Positions 1 through 6,070 of a DNA stretch of 7,372 nucleotides are shown here, piece by piece. Each line of letters opens with the position of its first letter. Positions within the stretch are counted from its first letter, which is position 1. The position numbers and the translations under genes are program-made. Source of the DNA: Candidatus Omnitrophota bacterium (GTDB lineage: Bacteria > Ratteibacteria > UBA8468 > B48-G9 > DTJG01). The stretch lies in contig JAMWBX010000056.1 in NCBI GenBank assembly GCA_023818725.1, positions 1-7,372 on the forward strand. Direction: 5' to 3'. Under the pieces are notes generated by a model, which was given only the letters and a program-made list of their open reading frames with translations, had not been told where the DNA came from and ran no database searches.

Positions 1-1910
1 TCCGGTGTATAAGGATTTTCATATATCTGCCCGTTTATCGTAATTGCAAGGTCGATTGAAATCCTCAAACACAGTATGACATCTGAAATGTCAATAAGCC
101 CATCTTTGTTGATATCTCCTTTGGCAGTGCCCTCCATCAGCAAATAAACATTGTCAATCGCCCAGTATAATGCGTCATAGGCGTTTTGATAGTTCCATCT
201 GATCTGTATCTGCGTTTCGCCTGCTTTAATCAGATATGGTTGTAACGAAAGAATTACTGTCCCTCGAGCGTCCTGGTAACGGAATCTTTTTATATTCTGC
301 CAGTTTCCATCATCCACTTTAATGTCGACATCAGCAATTTCAGAGCCGTATACATTAAAAAAGTGGTCGAACTTCAAAAATATCTTCGAATAGCCGTTGA
401 CAGTGACATTTTTTGTGATCAGCTGTTCATTCATCCATACCCTGCCAGCCCAGTCGCTATCCGCAATTATAAAGGGACTTGTTAGTTCGGAAATATCCCT
501 GTTTTTAGGATTTGAGGTTGTCCATGTTTTTCTGTCATTGTTTCCATCAATTATTGTCCAGCCGGGTGGCAGTCCTGAATCAAAGTTTTCCCTTAACAAA
601 ATGGTAAACCCCCTGGATACATCAGCAGAATAAAACGACTGGAGAAAATTTTTCCACAAGCCTTGAGCAAATTCAAGATTATTCTGATTATACGCAGGGT
701 CTACACCTGTGTTTTTGCCAGGGAAATATATTGATAATCCGGTGCCTTTTGGTTTTCCAAAATTTGCCACGATCATTGAATCAAATATGGACGATATGAT
801 TTCAGAGGCGTTAACCATTTCTTCTTTGGAGGCATTATTGAAAACTCCCTCAATAAAGGTTTTCAAGTCCCTGTAGTCAGGATCATCAAAAACTGGAGTT
901 TGAGAAAGGGAAATATGGAAATACAGCCACTGGTTGTCAAGTTCCATAGCTACCTGACAGAAATCATTTATTGCATCAAATATCTGGTCGCAAAAGGCCA
1001 GATTGACTGCTGAAAGTGTTTCTGTGCCATAATGGCCATAAAAATCGCTGTAGTGCTGAACAATCCTTTCAGAAAACTGATCAGGTTGATAATCAGGATT
1101 GTTAATTATGTCCTGGGCGATTGTGTTATATGGAAAACCGCTGGTGAATATTGTTTCTTCAGAAGCAATCATATAAGTGGCGCAATTTCTTACTTCATAC
1201 GCGACCTCAATCATTCCCATAAGACAGGCGTCAAACGCAATGATGTCAACATAACAATCAGGACCTGAAAGCGCCTGTCTTATTTCTTTTAGTGAAAGTT
1301 CATCAAATGAGGTGTTATCAAAACAAACACTCTTTTGATACCTTCTTGCATAAATTTTTCTTTTTAATTCCTTCAATGTTTTTTCAAGAGATGTTCTTAC
1401 CTCCCGCGATAGATTGCTCCGTTTTAATTGTTGTTCTATTTCATTTGCAACATAGTCCATTGAGCGCCAGCCATCTCCATGATCCCATAGAATGAGCGCA
1501 TAATATTGTGCGGGATAATTCTGTTTTGCCCATAGTATGAATGAGCGAAGAACAAGCGGGTCGCCCATATTCACTTCCCGTCCGCCAAAACCATCACCCC
1601 AATCAGAAATTGCATTAGAGATAGTGGGTTCCATATTTTGAGTTATTCTAAATCTTTGAGTATTTGTCCAGTTTCCATATCGGGTATCATAGCCGGGGAT
1701 TCTATCGAGCTGGACAATGAAATTTATCTCTTGCGTTGAGCCAATAGAAGCAACTTCCAGAAAGTCATTTATTGCATATTTTTCAAGGTCATTATCTCCG
1801 TCTAGATAGATCATTATTGTCCATTTTGCTATCGCGTAAGATTTCAAAGGAAAAGTTAAAAAAAGGAACGCTAAAATAAAAAAAATTGAAACCTTTTTAA
1901 TGTTAGTCAT
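1..1910 (-). CDS. Secreted clostripain-family (C11) cysteine peptidase with C-terminal dockerin-like repeat; 3' end outside the window
   Basis: At least 636 residues are read without a stop; the C-terminus lies beyond the left edge. The order is: signal peptide (about 1-26, Lys-rich start, hydrophobic core, SYA before the likely cut); a C11 peptidase domain opening with WTIMIYLDGDNDLE (from residue 29); the clan CD catalytic His144 in LWDHGDGW and nucleophile Cys229 in FDACLMG, followed by the family's ASEE segment; a beta-sandwich resembling cleaved-adhesin/choice-of-anchor J modules (about 436-596, opening ENFDSGLPPGW); then a dockerin-like calcium loop (598-621). Clostripain-type enzymes cut after Arg or Lys; whether this one does is inference. 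A Lys/Arg-rich insertion (163-193) lies between the catalytic residues, where family members self-process. The ATG overlaps the stop of the cohesin gene as ATGA with no clear Shine-Dalgarno, so translation is probably coupled. I see no anchor motif in the visible part. The family assignment is firm; the substrate is unknown. Confidence 0.93.
   Translation of the reverse strand, partial: MTNIKKVSIFFILAFLFLTFPLKSYAIAKWTIMIYLDGDNDLEKYAINDFLEVASIGSTQEINFIVQLDRIPGYDTRYGNWTNTQRFRITQNMEPTISNAISDWGDGFGGREVNMGDPLVLRSFILWAKQNYPAQYYALILWDHGDGWRSMDYVANEIEQQLKRSNLSREVRTSLEKTLKELKRKIYARRYQKSVCFDNTSFDELSLKEIRQALSGPDCYVDIIAFDACLMGMIEVAYEVRNCATYMIASEETIFTSGFPYNTIAQDIINNPDYQPDQFSERIVQHYSDFYGHYGTETLSAVNLAFCDQIFDAINDFCQVAMELDNQWLYFHISLSQTPVFDDPDYRDLKTFIEGVFNNASKEEMVNASEIISSIFDSMIVANFGKPKGTGLSIYFPGKNTGVDPAYNQNNLEFAQGLWKNFLQSFYSADVSRGFTILLRENFDSGLPPGWTIIDGNNDRKTWTTSNPKNRDISELTSPFIIADSDWAGRVWMNEQLITKNVTVNGYSKIFLKFDHFFNVYGSEIADVDIKVDDGNWQNIKRFRYQDARGTVILSLQPYLIKAGETQIQIRWNYQNAYDALYWAIDNVYLLMEGTAKGDINKDGLIDISDVILCLRISIDLAITINGQIYENPYTP
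48..119 (-). other. Dockerin-like calcium-binding repeat (first of an expected pair) in the C11 peptidase
   Basis: Residues 598-621 carry an F-hand loop: Asp599, Asn601, Asp603-Gly604, Asp607 and Asp610 occupy loop positions 1, 3, 5-6, 9 and 12, followed by a helix VILCLRISIDL. This is the layout of a type I dockerin half. Loop positions 10 and 11, which help set cohesin preference in Clostridium thermocellum (Ser-Thr there), are Ile-Ser here; positions 17-18 are Leu-Arg. Dockerins need two such repeats, and the second would lie to the left of base 1. After the helix comes a Tyr/Pro-containing spacer up to the edge. Confidence 0.8.
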
Positions 1911-3505
1911 TGTAGATAAATCGGTAAAGGCCTGCCTTTATCATCCCAGAGAGAACATCGCAACAGTTTTATGGTGTTGATATCCTGTTTTTTAAAATAG
2001 GAAAAAATGATGTTGAAAATTTTACCATCGCTTGTTTCTATTGCTGGCACTATTCCACCGCTGATTTTCAACAGATTTCCTTTTTGAGAGTGCCCACTAA
2101 GGACTTTGGCATTTTTTGGCGGTTCAATGGCTGATAATTTAAGGTTTGGATCGGAATTTAAAATCATTTCAAAGCTTGAAATGTTTTTTATATTTCCCTT
2201 TATAATCAGTGGGATGGAAATAGTTTTTGTACTTTCATCTACAATCGCATCGCCAAGCATCGCGGTCGCATGTACAATAATTTCAATTTCCCTTTTTGTT
2301 CCTATTTTTTCATCTGAAGATTCCGCAAAGATTGTAAGCTGGTATTTCCCACTTTTTAGAGTATCCTTTGCCTTTATAAAAACCGAGGTTTCCTTTTTTT
2401 CCGGGGTAAGACATGTTTCATCGAAAACTGCATCAAAATCCTGGGATTTTGCAGTGATATAAACCGGCCTGTCGAGCCCACCTAAAAATCTAATCCTTAA
2501 TGGAATAGAAAACTGATTTCTATCAGAGGCAATATTGACTGTTGACTGCGTTTCAATTGTGATTCCTGCTTCAACAGGTATCTTTTTCCATTTCCAAACA
2601 ATTTTAGAGTCCTTTTCTATTGTGAACGAAACCATATTAGTTTTTGTGTTATAGGCAGAACCTTTTCCTTCGCATCCAATGCAAACCACTTTTTCCATAT
2701 CATTAAGCAAAATCTCGGTTTCCACACGACACTCAATTCTGTCTCCTTTTGAGAAAGTTGTTATACCTGCCGGAGGCACAGGATTTCCGTATTCTGAAAG
2801 AACAAGTAGTATTACACTATTTGAAGGTTTCTGCTGATATAAACTCTTTTCTGTTTCCTTTGGTTCCAGTGTTTTTTCCATAGTCATCAAGAATTCATCA
2901 ATGTCAAAGGTGTCAGTTGTCTCGCTTACCATTGGGATCTGAGGGGAATCTAAGGGTGGTTTTGGTCGTGGTTCACCGGTTGGCACAGGTACAGTCCTTG
3001 CTTTGGTTTTTGTTTCTTCTGGTTGAGGTTTTATCGGTGGTTTTTCAGGTTGTTGTGTTTCTCCTGCTTTTATTGAGCCCGAAGAAGATGAACAAGGTAT
3101 CGCATACCCTTTTGGATCGGAAAGCTTGGCTGATGAAATAACAAGGCTTGAGTACCCCGGATTGATTATTTGAAATCTTAAAACCGCTAGGATTCCATTT
3201 CCAAATACACCTGACAGGGTGGGGTTAAATCCTGCGATTCTTATCAATCCCGGGGTATTTGTATTTGTCATAACTGTAAAATGAGATACATCTTGGCCTT
3301 TTTGCACATCCATAAGTTTCAGAATCTGTTGATTGTACTGGATTGTGATCTGATATCCTGCAAATTCCTTTTCGGATGAGAAGTATACATTTACATCAAT
3401 AAACGGTTGGGATTGAGGATTATTTATGGTTATTGATGGTATTTGTAAGCTGGCTCCAAATATGTAACCTGTCATTGCCAGGAAGGCTAAAATTAGTTTC
3501 TTCAT
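1907..3505 (-). CDS. Secreted multidomain cohesin-containing scaffold-like protein
   Basis: 532 residues. A signal peptide (1 to about 18, MKKLILAFLAMTGYIFGA) is followed by a cohesin domain (about 20-146), a Pro/Lys/Glu-rich linker (about 149-190), a bacterial-repeat (InlB B-like) module (about 230-309: EYGNPVPPAG ... KIVWKWKK), an Ig-like beta-sandwich (about 315-413) and a C-terminal domain that repeats the cohesin pattern (about 415-532). Cohesins bind dockerins, and the next gene downstream encodes a dockerin-bearing peptidase, so the likely role is to hold that peptidase outside the cytoplasm. I see no catalytic motif, transmembrane helix, sortase signal or SLH repeat, so surface attachment is unexplained. 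The ATG lies 16 nt after tRNA-Pro with no Shine-Dalgarno; it is chosen because it gives a proper signal peptide and nothing upstream fits. The stop overlaps the peptidase start (ATGA). The cohesin call is confident; a role as a protease scaffold is inferred. Confidence 0.9.
   Translation of the reverse strand: MKKLILAFLAMTGYIFGASLQIPSITINNPQSQPFIDVNVYFSSEKEFAGYQITIQYNQQILKLMDVQKGQDVSHFTVMTNTNTPGLIRIAGFNPTLSGVFGNGILAVLRFQIINPGYSSLVISSAKLSDPKGYAIPCSSSSGSIKAGETQQPEKPPIKPQPEETKTKARTVPVPTGEPRPKPPLDSPQIPMVSETTDTFDIDEFLMTMEKTLEPKETEKSLYQQKPSNSVILLVLSEYGNPVPPAGITTFSKGDRIECRVETEILLNDMEKVVCIGCEGKGSAYNTKTNMVSFTIEKDSKIVWKWKKIPVEAGITIETQSTVNIASDRNQFSIPLRIRFLGGLDRPVYITAKSQDFDAVFDETCLTPEKKETSVFIKAKDTLKSGKYQLTIFAESSDEKIGTKREIEIIVHATAMLGDAIVDESTKTISIPLIIKGNIKNISSFEMILNSDPNLKLSAIEPPKNAKVLSGHSQKGNLLKISGGIVPAIETSDGKIFNIIFSYFKKQDINTIKLLRCSLWDDKGRPLPIYLQ
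1910..2263 (-). other. C-terminal cohesin-like domain (divergent)
   Basis: Residues about 415-532 repeat the cohesin landmarks in order: ISSFEMILNSDPNLKLSAIEP, LLKISGG, GKIFNIIFSY, then SLWDDKGRPLPI close to the stop. The first domain has GYQITIQYNQQILKLMDV, LIRIAG, GILAVLRFQI and LSDPKGYAIP at the matching places. It is shorter and more diverged, so it may bind a different dockerin or be purely structural. The assignment rests on motif order read by eye, not a profile score. Confidence 0.55.
3068..3448 (-). other. N-terminal cohesin domain
   Basis: Residues about 20-146 follow the cohesin order: an opening strand, FAGYQITIQYNQQILKLMDV (counterpart of the typical GFQFTLTYDPSVLEF strand pair), NTPGLIRIAGF, GNGILAVLRFQI, and a closing LSDPKGYAIP...GSI. 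In known cohesins this nine-strand sandwich is the docking face for dockerins. There is one clear copy, unlike the tandem cohesins of large scaffoldins. Confidence 0.8.
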
Positions 3506-3521
3506 ATTTTTTTAAGTTGAA

Positions 3522-3596
3522 TCGGGGCGCCCAGATTTGAACTGGGGACCTCTTGGTCCCAAACCAAGCGCGCTAAGCCAGCTGCGCTACGCCCCG
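3522..3596 (-). tRNA. tRNA-Pro (anticodon TGG)
   Basis: A 75-nt cloverleaf. Acceptor CGGGGCG pairs fully with CGCCCCG, the D stem is GCGC/GCGC, the anticodon stem CTTGG/CCAAG encloses loop TTTGGGA (anticodon TGG, reads CCN Pro codons), and the T stem CCCAG/CTGGG encloses TTCAAAT. The discriminator is A. CCA is not encoded. The C1-G72 start and the CGTAGCGCAG segment are typical of bacterial tRNA-Pro. The cohesin gene begins 16 nt after its 3' end. Confidence 0.97.
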
Positions 3597-3606
3597 TTTT
3601 CGAATT

Positions 3607-3635
3607 ATTATACCACGATTTTCTTTTTATTTCAA
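3607..3635 (-). promoter_or_regulatory. Sigma-70-type promoter for tRNA-Pro (and probably the cohesin-peptidase genes)
   Basis: On the minus strand, TTGAAA (3630-3635) is followed by a 17-nt spacer and TATAAT (3607-3612). Transcription would start about 3600, just ahead of the tRNA 5' end at 3596. The -35 box overlaps the end of the lipoprotein gene (stop 3627-3629). No terminator hairpin is seen between the tRNA and the cohesin gene, so read-through is likely. Confidence 0.75.
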
Positions 3636-3950
3636 CGAAAGTCTGCCTGTTGCGGGATCATAATCATAATGCATTCCTGCTGGCGGTTCAGGAATTTTAT
3701 CAATAAATCCCTCATTTACAAGTTGCTGCAAAGAATCCGGATACTTGCCGTTTTGTCTCTTGTATGTATTTAGCTTATTTTTCAGATACATTAAATTGTC
3801 CTGGTGTGCTGTCCTTTTAAATTTTTGAAGGGTTTTTACCCCGGTTTCCTTGACCTTTTCTTCTAATTCACTTCTTTTTTTCCCACAACCGCAAACCACC
3901 ATCATAATAAGAGATAAGATGCCAAGAATTACAATTCTTCCTTTGCGCAT
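3627..3950 (-). CDS. Small lipoprotein with a pseudopilin (GspG)-like C-terminal segment
   Basis: 107 residues. It opens with MRKGR and a hydrophobic stretch ending in Val19-Cys20-Gly21-Cys22, a plausible lipobox with Cys22 as the lipidated residue; GKKR follows. A charged helical part (about 27-65) leads to YKRQNGKYPDSLQQLV (63-78) and YDYDPATGRLSLK (95-107). These resemble the globular end of type II secretion major pseudopilins (...NGRYP...L..LV...DPWG..Y.YDP..G). The N-terminal pilin methylation helix is missing and replaced by a lipoprotein signal, so it is not itself a pseudopilin. The start is supported by AGGAGG 6 nt upstream. It lies 10 nt after the glycosyltransferase stop, so the two are probably one operon. 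The function is unknown; an envelope protein is the safest statement. Confidence 0.8.
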   Translation of the reverse strand: MRKGRIVILGILSLIMMVVCGCGKKRSELEEKVKETGVKTLQKFKRTAHQDNLMYLKNKLNTYKRQNGKYPDSLQQLVNEGFIDKIPEPPAGMHYDYDPATGRLSLK

Positions 3951-3962: not shown

Positions 3963-4872
3963 ATCTTATTTCCTTTTCAACCAGGGATATGATATGTTCA
4001 ATTTTTATTTCCTGCAAACAAATATTGTTTGCGCACATATTTCTTGTTTCAATGTTACACGGAGAGCAGCCTGCGTGTAAACTGACAATCTTTACATTCT
4101 TACCTTCTGGTGCCCAGATTGCAGGGTCTGTTGGTCCGAATATGATAAAGGTTTTCAATCCAGTAAATGCAGCAAGATGAGAAACACCGGAATCGTTTCC
4201 AATAAACCATTTTCCTGTCTCAAGTGCCTGTGATAGCTCCACCAGGTTTTTCGGGATGAGCAGATCAGGCGCGTCAGTGTTTTTTTTCCAGAATTCATAA
4301 TCAGAAATTTCGCATTCTCCGAGTATAATTTTTGGTTTGCATATCCTTTGAAAATAACGGTAAACTTCAACGAAGTTTTCAGCAGGCCAGTTTTTCTTCT
4401 TGCTTCCACTACCAGGATGGATAAAGAGAAGGTCACAAGCATTCCTTTTCACGGTTTCAGGATAATGAATATTCAGTCCCATCTTTTTCAGAGGCATTAA
4501 AAGAAATTCTGTTATCTGACAGGTAATCTTCTTAGGTATTGGATGAAATACTACTTTTGTGCCGTAAGTTGAAACTAAATTTTGGGAGAAAATTTCGTTT
4601 CTTTCGATATAACAGATAACAAGGTCGAAATCAGGGAAATCCGATATTTTGATTTTTTTTCTTTCTGAAAAAAACTCAGTAAGGCAGTAGTCGCCAAATC
4701 CAATTCCTCTAGCTATTATCCCTTTTTTTTCAAAAAATGTGTTGACTTTTTCATTACCGGCAAGATAAACATTGAAATGATTCTTTTTTAGAGATGTCAG
4801 CACTGGTATCGTCGCAATCTGGTCACCAAGACTTCCAGGTCTTATTACAAGTGCGTTTTTGTCTGTTTTCAT
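3961..4872 (-). CDS. Glycosyltransferase family 9 (ADP-heptose:LPS heptosyltransferase-like)
   Basis: 303 residues from the ATG at 4872. Family GT9 (GT-B fold) transfers heptose, or in distant members other sugars, to the lipopolysaccharide core at the inner face of the cytoplasmic membrane. Visible hallmarks are VIRPGSLGDQIATIPVL (residues 9-25, the N-terminal acceptor-side loop), HPGSGSKKKNWP (152-163), GNDSGVSHLAA (225-235, the donor-site motif) and FGPTDPAIWAP (245-255). The Cys269/Cys272/Cys280/Cys285 cluster near the C-terminus (CSPC...C....C) is common in this family. A longer reading from a TTG at 4968 is possible, but it would run into the divergent rhomboid gene and adds residues before the conserved start, so the ATG is preferred. 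There is no Shine-Dalgarno; the message may be leaderless. The small lipoprotein follows after 10 nt. The exact sugar and acceptor cannot be told from sequence. Confidence 0.9.
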   Translation of the reverse strand: MKTDKNALVIRPGSLGDQIATIPVLTSLKKNHFNVYLAGNEKVNTFFEKKGIIARGIGFGDYCLTEFFSERKKIKISDFPDFDLVICYIERNEIFSQNLVSTYGTKVVFHPIPKKITCQITEFLLMPLKKMGLNIHYPETVKRNACDLLFIHPGSGSKKKNWPAENFVEVYRYFQRICKPKIILGECEISDYEFWKKNTDAPDLLIPKNLVELSQALETGKWFIGNDSGVSHLAAFTGLKTFIIFGPTDPAIWAPEGKNVKIVSLHAGCSPCNIETRNMCANNICLQEIKIEHIISLVEKEIR

Positions 4873-4888
4873 AACTTTATTATATAAT
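4859..4888 (+). promoter_or_regulatory. Probable promoter of the rhomboid gene
   Basis: TTGTCT (4859-4864, four of six consensus bases) lies inside the 5' end of the GT9 gene, then an 18-nt spacer, then a perfect TATAAT (4883-4888). Transcription would begin near 4895, giving a leader of about 15 nt that still holds the ribosome binding site. Confidence 0.5.
4879..4884 (-). promoter_or_regulatory. -10 element of a probable leaderless promoter for the GT9 gene
   Basis: TATAAT on the minus strand ends 6 nt before the ATG at 4872, which would place the transcription start at or next to the A of the start codon. The upstream sequence AAATTATATAATAAAGTT has no Shine-Dalgarno. The best -35 candidate, TTGCCC (4900-4905), has only a 15-nt spacer, so the -35 is weak. 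The same bases form half of a palindrome shared with the rhomboid promoter. Confidence 0.5.
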
Positions 4889-4895
4889 TTTACCA

Positions 4896-4902
4896 GAGAG
4901 GG
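4896..4902 (+). promoter_or_regulatory. Ribosome binding site deciding the rhomboid start
   Basis: GAGAGGG lies 7 nt before the ATG at 4910. It supports that ATG over an in-frame upstream ATG at 4859, which would overlap the GT9 gene and adds 17 residues ahead of the usual rhomboid N-terminus. Confidence 0.75.
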
Positions 4903-4909
4903 CAATTTA

Positions 4910-6070
4910 ATGATTTTTTTTTGGCCAATACATGACGAATTCGGTGTAAAAAGACTACCGGTTGTCAATTACCTGATAATCTGTGTAAATGTTTTTGTAT
5001 TTTTACTTTTCGGTTTTAGCTCATCTTATCAATACATTGTAGATCAGTACGGTCTCATTCCATCAAAATTTTCCTGGTTAAATGTTTTTACTTCAATGTT
5101 TCTTCACGGAGGATTAATGCACCTTGTTGGGAATATGTGGTATCTGTACTTGATGGGTGATAATCTTGAGGATAGATGGGGACACTTTCAATATTTCATT
5201 TTTTATTTGATTTCAGGTATTCTGGCTGCTTTGTTTTATGTCACATTTGTGCCCGAGTCTGCAAGAAATATTCCTTCGATCGGCGCTTCTGGTGCTATTT
5301 CCGGGGTACTGGGTGCGTATTTGATTTTATTTCCAAAAAGTAGAATCACATTCTGGTACTATATTTTCGTATTCTTTAGAATTTATTCAGGCACATTTGA
5401 CATTTTTGCAGGATTCTGGATTTCTATGTGGTTCATTCAACAATTAACAGGCATGTTTTTTAGTATGGGCTCTACCTATTCTGCAATTGCATTTGGAGCC
5501 CATGTTGGTGGGTTTCTTGCAGGAATTGGAATTGGATTTTTGGCAAAGGCCTATCAGAAGGTGCGATATATTCAAAACGTTTACCAGGGTCGCACTGCTC
5601 TTTCAGCTATAACAGGTGAGATATCTCGAAAGATATTACCTTTTGAACAGCAGGTAGATCAATACAATACTGAAAAAGAAATTGACAGGCTATTGAATGA
5701 TAAAAACGAAAGGGAAGCTGCCGTACTTTATGGAAAGGCATTAAAAAACTATCCCGAGGTTTTTATAAAGCCATCTAATGAATATAAATTTGCTGAAATA
5801 CTTTACAGTATTGGGTTCATTGATGAGGCTATTGATGCCTTCAAAAGATTTATTCGCAAAAATCCATTCAGTCAGTTTACTGATAACGCCCTTTACAATC
5901 TCGGGCAGATTTATCTTCAAAAAGGCGAAAATGAAAAAGCGAAAGAATGCTTCAGACAGATCGTTTTATTCTATCTCTACAGTGAACTTCAGGATGCTGC
6001 AAGATATAATCTCGCGAATATATTAAAGCCAGAGTCTGTCTTTGTGGAAAATAAGAATTTCAGGGTATAA
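4910..6070 (+). CDS. Rhomboid family intramembrane serine protease with C-terminal TPR region
   Basis: 386 residues. Rhomboids cut transmembrane segments of other proteins inside the membrane. The N-terminus MIFFWPIHDE...LPVVNYLIICVNVFVFLL leads into the first membrane helix (about 16-36). HGGLMHLVGN (66-75) holds His71 and Asn75, the counterparts of the E. coli GlpG oxyanion residues His150 and Asn154. IGASGAISGVLGAY carries the nucleophile Ser127 in GASG. AFGAHVGGFLAG carries the catalytic His198. About six membrane helices end near 213. The rest (about 225-386) is soluble and contains at least two TPR-like units (about 293-365: FAEILYSIGFIDEAIDAFKR and ALYNLGQIYLQKGENEKAKE), probably a cytoplasmic protein-binding tail. 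The ATG at 4910 is supported by GAGAGGG. The catalytic set looks complete. The substrate is unknown. It is divergent from GT9 with only 37 bp between, and tRNA-Thr follows after 11 nt. Confidence 0.93.
   Translation: MIFFWPIHDEFGVKRLPVVNYLIICVNVFVFLLFGFSSSYQYIVDQYGLIPSKFSWLNVFTSMFLHGGLMHLVGNMWYLYLMGDNLEDRWGHFQYFIFYLISGILAALFYVTFVPESARNIPSIGASGAISGVLGAYLILFPKSRITFWYYIFVFFRIYSGTFDIFAGFWISMWFIQQLTGMFFSMGSTYSAIAFGAHVGGFLAGIGIGFLAKAYQKVRYIQNVYQGRTALSAITGEISRKILPFEQQVDQYNTEKEIDRLLNDKNEREAAVLYGKALKNYPEVFIKPSNEYKFAEILYSIGFIDEAIDAFKRFIRKNPFSQFTDNALYNLGQIYLQKGENEKAKECFRQIVLFYLYSELQDAARYNLANILKPESVFVENKNFRV

What the first reader, a model, noticed from the sequence alone, without database searches (positions are those of the whole stretch)
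1..3505. A translationally coupled cohesin protein and dockerin-bearing protease: a possible minimal, non-cellulosomal protease complex
Seen: the secreted protein at 1907-3505 has a clear cohesin domain. The next gene, overlapping by ATGA, encodes a secreted C11 peptidase with a dockerin-type calcium loop at 598-621. Known: cohesin-dockerin pairing is tight and assembles cellulosomes in Clostridia. Isolated cohesins and dockerins occur in other bacteria and archaea, mostly with no known function. Inference: the two products bind each other, so the scaffold captures the protease on or outside the cell in what looks like a diderm bacterium with no cellulase in view. The coupling suggests fixed stoichiometry.
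Basis: partly seen in the sequence, partly recalled or inferred. Interest (0 to 1): 0.78.

Follow-up and report, generated by a model that had tools for sequence, protein, structure and literature searches.

The report
Protease-docking cohesin system without cellulases
In an uncultured bacterium the gene for a cohesin 'socket' protein overlaps the gene for a secreted protein-cutting enzyme that carries a dockerin 'plug' (half of it cut off at the end of this DNA piece), and because relatives keep this pair and encode many other plug-bearing proteins, several of them peptidases, these bacteria likely build cellulosome-like docking complexes for digesting protein rather than cellulose.

Summary
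The protein at 1907-3505 (-) has a Pfam cohesin domain (41.6 bits, cut-off 24.1). The overlapping next gene is a C11 (clostripain-type) peptidase whose dockerin is cut by the contig end; a 95% identical ortholog keeps both repeats. The ATGA overlap recurs in 5 of 6 genus junctions.

The interpretation needs widening: not a minimal pair but one node of a lineage-wide system, with cohesins in 11 of 28 order genomes and dockerins in 15 of 28 (115 places). Of 28 cohesin proteins, 21 have a separate dockerin gene within 5 kb (1.4 expected). Cohesins are soluble (as here), adaptor (with dockerin), or carry a CFI-box-CTERM, probably an anchor. Dockerin proteins include peptidases C11, M14, S8, C14 and C1; no glycoside hydrolase appeared in the tables shown.

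Binding was not tested. Peptidase-type cohesin-dockerin assemblies are already proposed elsewhere ('planctosome', Ca. Stygibacter): a new variant of a known kind. Unexpected: tRNA-Pro(UGG) ends 16 nt before the cohesin gene and precedes it in 7 of 7 genus genomes holding the gene.

The parts
1907..3505 (-). Cohesin protein, 532 aa: signal peptide, cohesin, Pro-rich linker, central beta domain, Ig-like part, C-terminal cohesin-like domain
3107..3400 (-). N-terminal cohesin domain (residues 36-133 by Pfam)
2825..3058 (-). Pro-rich, low-confidence linker (residues 150-227)
   Evidence: pLDDT under 50 at 150-227
2576..2824 (-). Central beta domain (residues 228-310), also found as a repeat in unrelated large proteins
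   Evidence: partial matches at query residues about 230-308 in G037, G011, G016 and others
1907..2284 (-). C-terminal domain (residues 408-532) predicted to have a cohesin-like fold
3..1910 (-). Secreted C11 (clostripain-family) peptidase with C-terminal dockerin, 636 aa seen, open at the contig end
   Evidence: PF03415 E 1.9e-51; ortholog in L061 complete
1224..1481 (-). Stretch from the candidate catalytic His144 (DHGDGW) to Cys229 (DACLMG)
   Evidence: positions; both motifs align to clostripain 9cip_A; catalytic roles recalled from the C11 literature
141..602 (-). Beta-sandwich between peptidase and dockerin (weak Cleaved_Adhesin / choice_anch_J matches, both under cut-off)
   Evidence: 18.7 of 21.4 bits; 23 of 30 bits
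39..119 (-). First dockerin repeat (calcium loop at residues 598-621); the second repeat would lie beyond the contig end
   Evidence: 47.9 bits, profile positions 1-27 of 54; for the ortholog
1907..1910 (-). ATGA overlap of cohesin stop and C11 start
   Evidence: same in 5 of 6 genus genomes
3522..3596 (-). tRNA-Pro(UGG), 16 nt upstream of the cohesin start codon
3607..3635 (-). Promoter-like site just upstream of the tRNA (11 of 12 matches, TG before the second hexamer); consensus match only
   Evidence: 8 sites found in the region, 5.9 expected in shuffles; TATAAT at the same place in L061, L062, L063, L064 and L068, not in L065

Best explanation
The window encodes a cohesin receptor protein and, in the overlapping next gene, a C11 cysteine peptidase with a dockerin, which likely dock to each other as one node of a wider, peptidase-rich cohesin-dockerin assembly on the cell surface. 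Shown: the cohesin, the peptidase, the dockerin (whole in the ortholog), the conserved gene pair, the other cohesins and dockerins of the lineage, and their clustering on one strand. Inferred: both proteins are exported by their signal peptides; the dockerin binds a cohesin in a calcium-dependent way; CFI-box-CTERM cohesins hold the assembly on the cell while short cohesin-dockerin proteins act as adaptors; C11, M14 carboxypeptidase, S8, C14-like and C1-like peptidases are thereby concentrated for protein digestion, an endopeptidase plus exopeptidase division of labour. Inferred for expression: tRNA-Pro, cohesin and C11 are one transcript, and processing of the tRNA 3' end would leave a very short mRNA leader; the ATGA overlap would couple translation.
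For: Domains. Second repeat in the ortholog. Pair conservation: adjacent in G000, G002, G003, G004, G006, G007 (6 of 8 in the genus); one gene between in G011, G013, G018. Within the order, cohesin genomes are a subset of dockerin genomes: 11 with both, 4 dockerin only, 0 cohesin only, 13 neither (28 genomes; Fisher p 6.7e-5, not corrected for kinship). 21 of 28 cohesin proteins have a separate dockerin gene within 5 kb against 1.41 expected from uniform placement; 31 of 31 such neighbour pairs on the same strand. Probable anchors: NF041770 CFI_box_CTERM over cut-off on cohesin proteins in L063, L064, L069 and P0042. Adaptors: proteins of about 225 aa with one cohesin and one dockerin in L064, L182, L185 and L194. 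P0042 joins cohesin, CFI box, C11 and dockerin in one reading frame. Client peptidases: of 79 dockerin proteins under 1100 aa, M14 in 10, C11 in 8, S8 in 1; C14 in two of 15 larger ones scanned; C1 in the N-terminus of a 3424-aa one when that part was scanned alone (the whole-protein scan at E 0.001 did not list it). In a quick C11 tree of 124 rows all 36 clear dockerin rows fall in one 40-row clade (SH-aLRT 95); 3 of its 4 rows without dockerin are short (359, 428 and 502 aa).
Confidence: 0.6

Rival explanations
1. Exclusive binary complex: the cohesin binds only the co-encoded C11 dockerin, in a fixed ratio.
For: Overlapping start and stop kept in 5 of 6 genus genomes; the two genes stay close in three families.
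Against: Up to 18 dockerin places per genome, often with the same loop residues (36 of 86 with IS at both loops); other cohesins cluster with other dockerin genes; three further genomes have one gene between the two.
Confidence: 0.17
2. Crossed pairing: the C11 dockerin docks on the CFI-box cohesins, while the co-encoded soluble cohesin serves other dockerin proteins or acts as a decoy or shuttle.
For: In G018 and in P0042 a CFI-box cohesin lies directly before the C11-dockerin; the soluble cohesin lacks a recognised anchor; two C11 proteins of the same class carry the CFI box themselves and no dockerin.
Against: In 5 of 6 genus genomes the soluble cohesin, not the CFI-box one, overlaps C11. 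The CFI-bearing C11 proteins are not the sister group of the dockerin-bearing ones in the quick tree, so a direct swap of attachment is not shown.
Confidence: 0.17
3. No docking: the dockerin is a calcium-stabilised tail and the cohesin fold an adhesion or carbohydrate-binding module; proximity reflects co-regulation of secreted proteins.
For: The C-terminal cohesin-like domain also resembles cellulose-binding domains; a giant Omnitrophota protein with nine dockerins was read as a possible adhesin in print (passage of PMC10066038).
Against: In the 28 order genomes cohesins occur only where dockerins do, are strongly clustered with them, and combined adaptor proteins exist.
Confidence: 0.06

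Closest known systems
'Planctosome' proposed for freshwater Nemodlikiaceae (Planctomycetes), PMC6461901 (passages seen)
   Same: Cohesin-dockerin modules without cellulose degradation; anchor, adaptor with both modules, and peptidases including M14
   Different: There: LTD and P-domain anchor, HYR adaptor, M12B reprolysin; here: C11 in an overlapping pair with its own cohesin, CFI-box-CTERM cohesins, short cohesin-dockerin adaptors, a tRNA just upstream, another phylum
Cellulosome-like complex of Ca. Stygibacter (Cloacimonadota), PMC8542988 (passages seen)
   Same: Dockerin on signal-peptide peptidases (S8/S53, C25) in an uncultured lineage
   Different: There: one 3755-aa scaffoldin with tandem cohesins and CBMs, and dockerins on GH18 and GH57; here: one or two cohesins per protein, no glycoside hydrolase in the tables shown for dockerin proteins
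Clostridial cellulosome (CaCohA2-CaDoc0917, PDB 6kgc, is the nearest solved cohesin by Z)
   Same: Cohesin fold and two-repeat dockerin
   Different: No protein with more than two detected cohesins, no cellulase in the tables shown; a different phylum
Non-cellulosomal cohesins and dockerins, e.g. Archaeoglobus fulgidus (PDB 2xdh) and ANME archaea (PMC9012536, passages seen)
   Same: Varied secreted clients; 2xdh is the best Foldseek hit
   Different: Here clients include several peptidase families and the cohesin gene overlaps one of them; ANME scaffoldin-like proteins have up to five cohesins and common clients are transporter binding proteins
Clostripain family C11 (PDB 9cip, 6mzo)
   Same: Catalytic domain with His and Cys motifs
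   Different: C-terminal beta-sandwich and dockerin; far below the NCBIfam clostripain equivalog cut-off (91 of 550 bits)

Membership tests
Cohesin domain (PF00963) | Profile match over the curated cut-off | tested here: met
   41.6 against 24.1 bits
Cohesin domain (PF00963) | Cohesin fold | tested here: met
Cohesin domain (PF00963) | Calcium-dependent binding of a dockerin | not testable with these tools
   No complex predictor or assay
Cohesin-like second domain (residues 408-532) | Cohesin fold and sequence relation to cohesins | tested here: inconclusive
Dockerin type I | Two calcium-loop repeats | tested here: inconclusive
   Window holds one repeat, cut by the contig end; the 95% identical ortholog has both
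Dockerin type I | Pfam Dockerin_1 over cut-off | tested here: inconclusive
   Not in the window fragment; among 35 close C11 homologs P0018-P0052 the precomputed column lists PF00404 in 10, while the lineage profile finds a dockerin in 33 of 35
Peptidase family C11 | PF03415 over cut-off | tested here: met
   176.2 against 25.8 bits
Peptidase family C11 | Catalytic His and Cys | tested here: met
   His144 and Cys229 aligned to clostripain 9cip_A; the roles are recalled
Cellulosome | Scaffoldin with many cohesins and a cellulose-binding module | tested here: inconclusive
   At most two profile-detected cohesins per protein, but one of those two-cohesin frames (L077) is cut by a contig end, and most cohesin proteins were not scanned with Pfam for CBMs
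Cellulosome | Dockerin-bearing cellulases | tested here: inconclusive
   No glycoside hydrolase in the tables shown for 79 dockerin proteins (25 of 41 families shown), in 28 of those scanned singly, or in 15 of 25 larger ones; the rest was not seen
Planctosome-like assembly | Adaptor with cohesin and dockerin; dockerin peptidases | tested here: met
Planctosome-like assembly | Cell-anchored cohesin | tested here: inconclusive
   CFI-box-CTERM on cohesin proteins; its anchoring role is inferred
Planctosome-like assembly | LTD and P-domain anchor, HYR adaptor, M12B peptidase | tested here: inconclusive
   Not seen in the scans made; most cohesin proteins were scanned with NCBIfam only or not at all

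The most novel reading that the evidence does not exclude
A third independent kind of cohesin-dockerin machine: a modular surface protease station of a candidate phylum (relatives labelled Omnitrophota, Ratteibacteria, TA06), in which clan CD and other peptidases (C11, C14, M14, S8, C1) plug into soluble, adaptor and CFI-box-anchored cohesins, and whose core cohesin-protease operon is transcribed from a tRNA-Pro promoter and released as short-leader mRNA by tRNA processing.
Probability: 0.35. Interest if true: 0.78.

Novelty: new variant of a known kind. Interest (0 to 1): 0.6.

Why it matters
Isolated cohesins and dockerins outside cellulosomes have mostly lacked a known function. Here a conserved overlapping gene pair names a concrete receptor and client, short enough to express, in a lineage where dockerins sit on several peptidase families and cohesins come as soluble, adaptor and probably anchored forms. 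If binding is confirmed, cohesin-dockerin docking is a general way to assemble secreted enzymes, not a cellulose speciality. The tRNA next to the cohesin gene would be a testable case of a bacterial tRNA-mRNA transcript.

Tried and rejected
Second cohesin by sequence: hhalign of N- against C-terminal profiles gave probability 3.6; only the fold comparison supports it. Direct swap of attachment in C11 (CFI box replaced by dockerin): considered because two C11 proteins of the same class carry the CFI box and no dockerin, rejected as shown ancestry because those rows are not sister to the dockerin clade in the quick tree. Dockerin specificity classes by linker length (short or long between the repeats): rejected, because C11 orthologs differ in it. 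G001 as a lineage that lost the pair: weakened, as no tRNA-Pro(UGG) was found in its assembly either. Whole-model Foldseek hits to integrins and macroglobulins: multi-domain beta matches, ignored. Library absences from fold tables are not used as evidence.

Literature (searches of the held PMC library only): no paper held both 'clostripain' and 'dockerin' or both 'Ratteibacteria' and 'dockerin'; of 20 papers matching 'CFI-box' or 'choice-of-anchor' terms the 10 listed held no 'CFI-box'; a phrase search for tRNA-mRNA operons returned three plant papers. Peer et al. 2009 is not held and is known only from citations in other papers.

Rows dropped: three dockerin proteins in G031 (L221) were left out of the counts. 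P0016 (fragment) was left out of the hhalign profiles. The order's very short or unfetched dockerin places are in the 115 but not among the 104 proteins.
Full report
What is there. The window is a complete 7372-base contig of a fragmented genome bin (1.47 Mb in 271 contigs, 64% complete). On the minus strand, in order: the end of an AcrB-type transporter, then (after a plus-strand rhomboid-TPR gene and tRNA-Thr) a GT9 glycosyltransferase, a small lipoprotein with a weak T2SSG match, tRNA-Pro(UGG), the cohesin protein, and the C11 peptidase running off the end. What cannot be seen in the window is the second dockerin repeat, because the contig ends after the first; a 95% identical ortholog carries both repeats.

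Conservation of the pair. Homologs of the whole cohesin protein are few: 17 proteins, its own included, among the 7999 candidates scored, some labelled Omnitrophica or Ratteibacteria. Six loci with organism names were found: three Ca. Omnitrophota (one from Tibet), two 'bacterium', one TA06 ADurb.Bin131. In the genus (8 genomes) the pair is adjacent in 6; in G005 the contig ends inside the cohesin gene; in G001 neither gene was found. G011 and G013 (another family) have one gene between the two; in G018 (a third family) a CFI-box cohesin lies between them. G016 has the cohesin homolog without C11; G023 has C11-dockerin without a detected cohesin. The exact ATGA overlap is in 5 of 6 genus junctions.

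A system, not a pair. With Pfam PF00963, 11 of 28 order genomes (12 of 35 in the phylum) have cohesins, 30 domains in the order. With a lineage dockerin profile, 15 of 28 have dockerins, 115 places. Cohesin genomes are a subset of dockerin genomes (11 both, 4 dockerin only, 0 cohesin only, 13 neither; Fisher p 6.7e-5, not corrected for kinship). Of 28 cohesin proteins, 21 have a separate dockerin gene within 5 kb, against 1.41 expected if dockerins were placed uniformly; all 31 neighbour pairs are on the same strand. The seven without are two at contig ends (G004:C143, G005:C111), three from G016, one from G013, and the G007 adaptor at a contig start, which has its own dockerin.

Cohesin types. 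Besides the soluble type of the window, there are cohesins that carry a CFI-box-CTERM (NF041770 over cut-off in L063, L064, L069; a choice-of-anchor U domain over cut-off in L063, under it in L064) with a hydrophobic stretch after it (read by eye), and short proteins with one cohesin and one dockerin (L064, L182, L185, L194), the last three beside very large dockerin proteins. P0042 is a single reading frame of cohesin, CFI box, C11 and dockerin; it may be a true fusion or two genes that lost a stop. The anchoring role of the CFI box is inferred from its name, place and hydrophobic end.

Clients. 104 dockerin proteins were assembled from the order's loci (three of G031 left out). Of the 79 under 1100 aa, M14 carboxypeptidase occurs in 10, C11 in 8, S8 in 1; 15 of the 25 larger ones were scanned singly: two have caspase-like C14 domains, and the N-terminus of a 3424-aa one, scanned alone, has a papain-type C1 match (E 1.7e-7; not listed in the whole-protein scan). 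Others carry propellers, RCC1, NHL, FG-GAP, Ig-like and beta-helix domains. No glycoside hydrolase appears in the tables shown; 16 of 41 families were not displayed (28 of the 79 were also scanned singly), and 10 of the 25 larger proteins were not scanned. In the own genome the other dockerin proteins are L071, L072 and L213, the last in the cluster of the M14 protein L198.

Evolution. In a quick tree of 124 C11 proteins all 36 clear dockerin rows are in one 40-row clade (SH-aLRT 95); of its 4 rows without dockerin three are short (359-502 aa) and one is P0051 (591 aa). Eight rows have a C-terminal CFI box, none with a clear dockerin and none in that clade, including two from the same class. 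Attachment thus looks solved two ways, but not by a shown direct swap.

Expression. The tRNA-Pro(UGG) gene ends 16 nt before the cohesin start, with an 11-of-12 promoter-like site just upstream of the tRNA (the number of sites in the region is near the shuffled expectation). The same tRNA sits just before the cohesin gene, 8-16 nt with the likely starts, in 7 of 7 genus genomes that have the gene; no tRNA was found in the loci of the other families (L066, L067, L069, L070). A DNA search with this tRNA gave 14 matches in the 8 genus genomes: the seven loci named and seven others at 78-80%; the three of those that I checked (two in G001, one in G006) are CGG or GGG isoacceptors. A tRNA-cohesin-C11 transcript is therefore likely but untested. 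Long N-termini of some homologs (P0005, P0008) look like the tRNA read as protein.

Verdict. Stygibacter).

Noticed in passing
window 3505-3635: tRNA-Pro(UGG) directly precedes the cohesin gene (16 nt) and does so in 7 of 7 genus genomes with the gene: likely tRNA-mRNA operon with a very short leader.
   Followed up: partly
window 3627-3950: Small lipoprotein with a weak T2SS protein G match (17.5 of 21 bits); a similar small protein stands at this place in L061, L062, L063, L064 and L068. Function unknown.
   Followed up: no
window 4859-6070: Rhomboid membrane protease fused to TPR repeats, divergent from GT9; frames with a like N-terminus stand at this place in L061, L062, L063, L064, L065 and L068.
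   Followed up: no
L219 2647-4866, L220 3337-5172: C11 peptidases of the same class end in a CFI-box-CTERM instead of a dockerin.
   Followed up: partly
L194 5285-15559, L185 7214-17485, L227 5790-16028: Dockerin proteins of about 3400 aa; L194 has a papain-like start, Kelch, RCC1 and hydrolase-like parts; in L194 and L185 they lie beside a cohesin-dockerin adaptor.
   Followed up: partly
P0082: A distant C11 protein of 809 aa matched the cohesin profile: another possible C11-cohesin architecture.
   Followed up: no
L234 2-4387, L242 1100-7966: Dockerin proteins with caspase-like C14 domains.
   Followed up: no
L063 12727-16527, L064 3895-6840: CFI-box cohesin frames run on into a second protein that by eye looks like an outer-membrane barrel (separate frame in L073 and L074); TraB match far under cut-off.
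   Followed up: no
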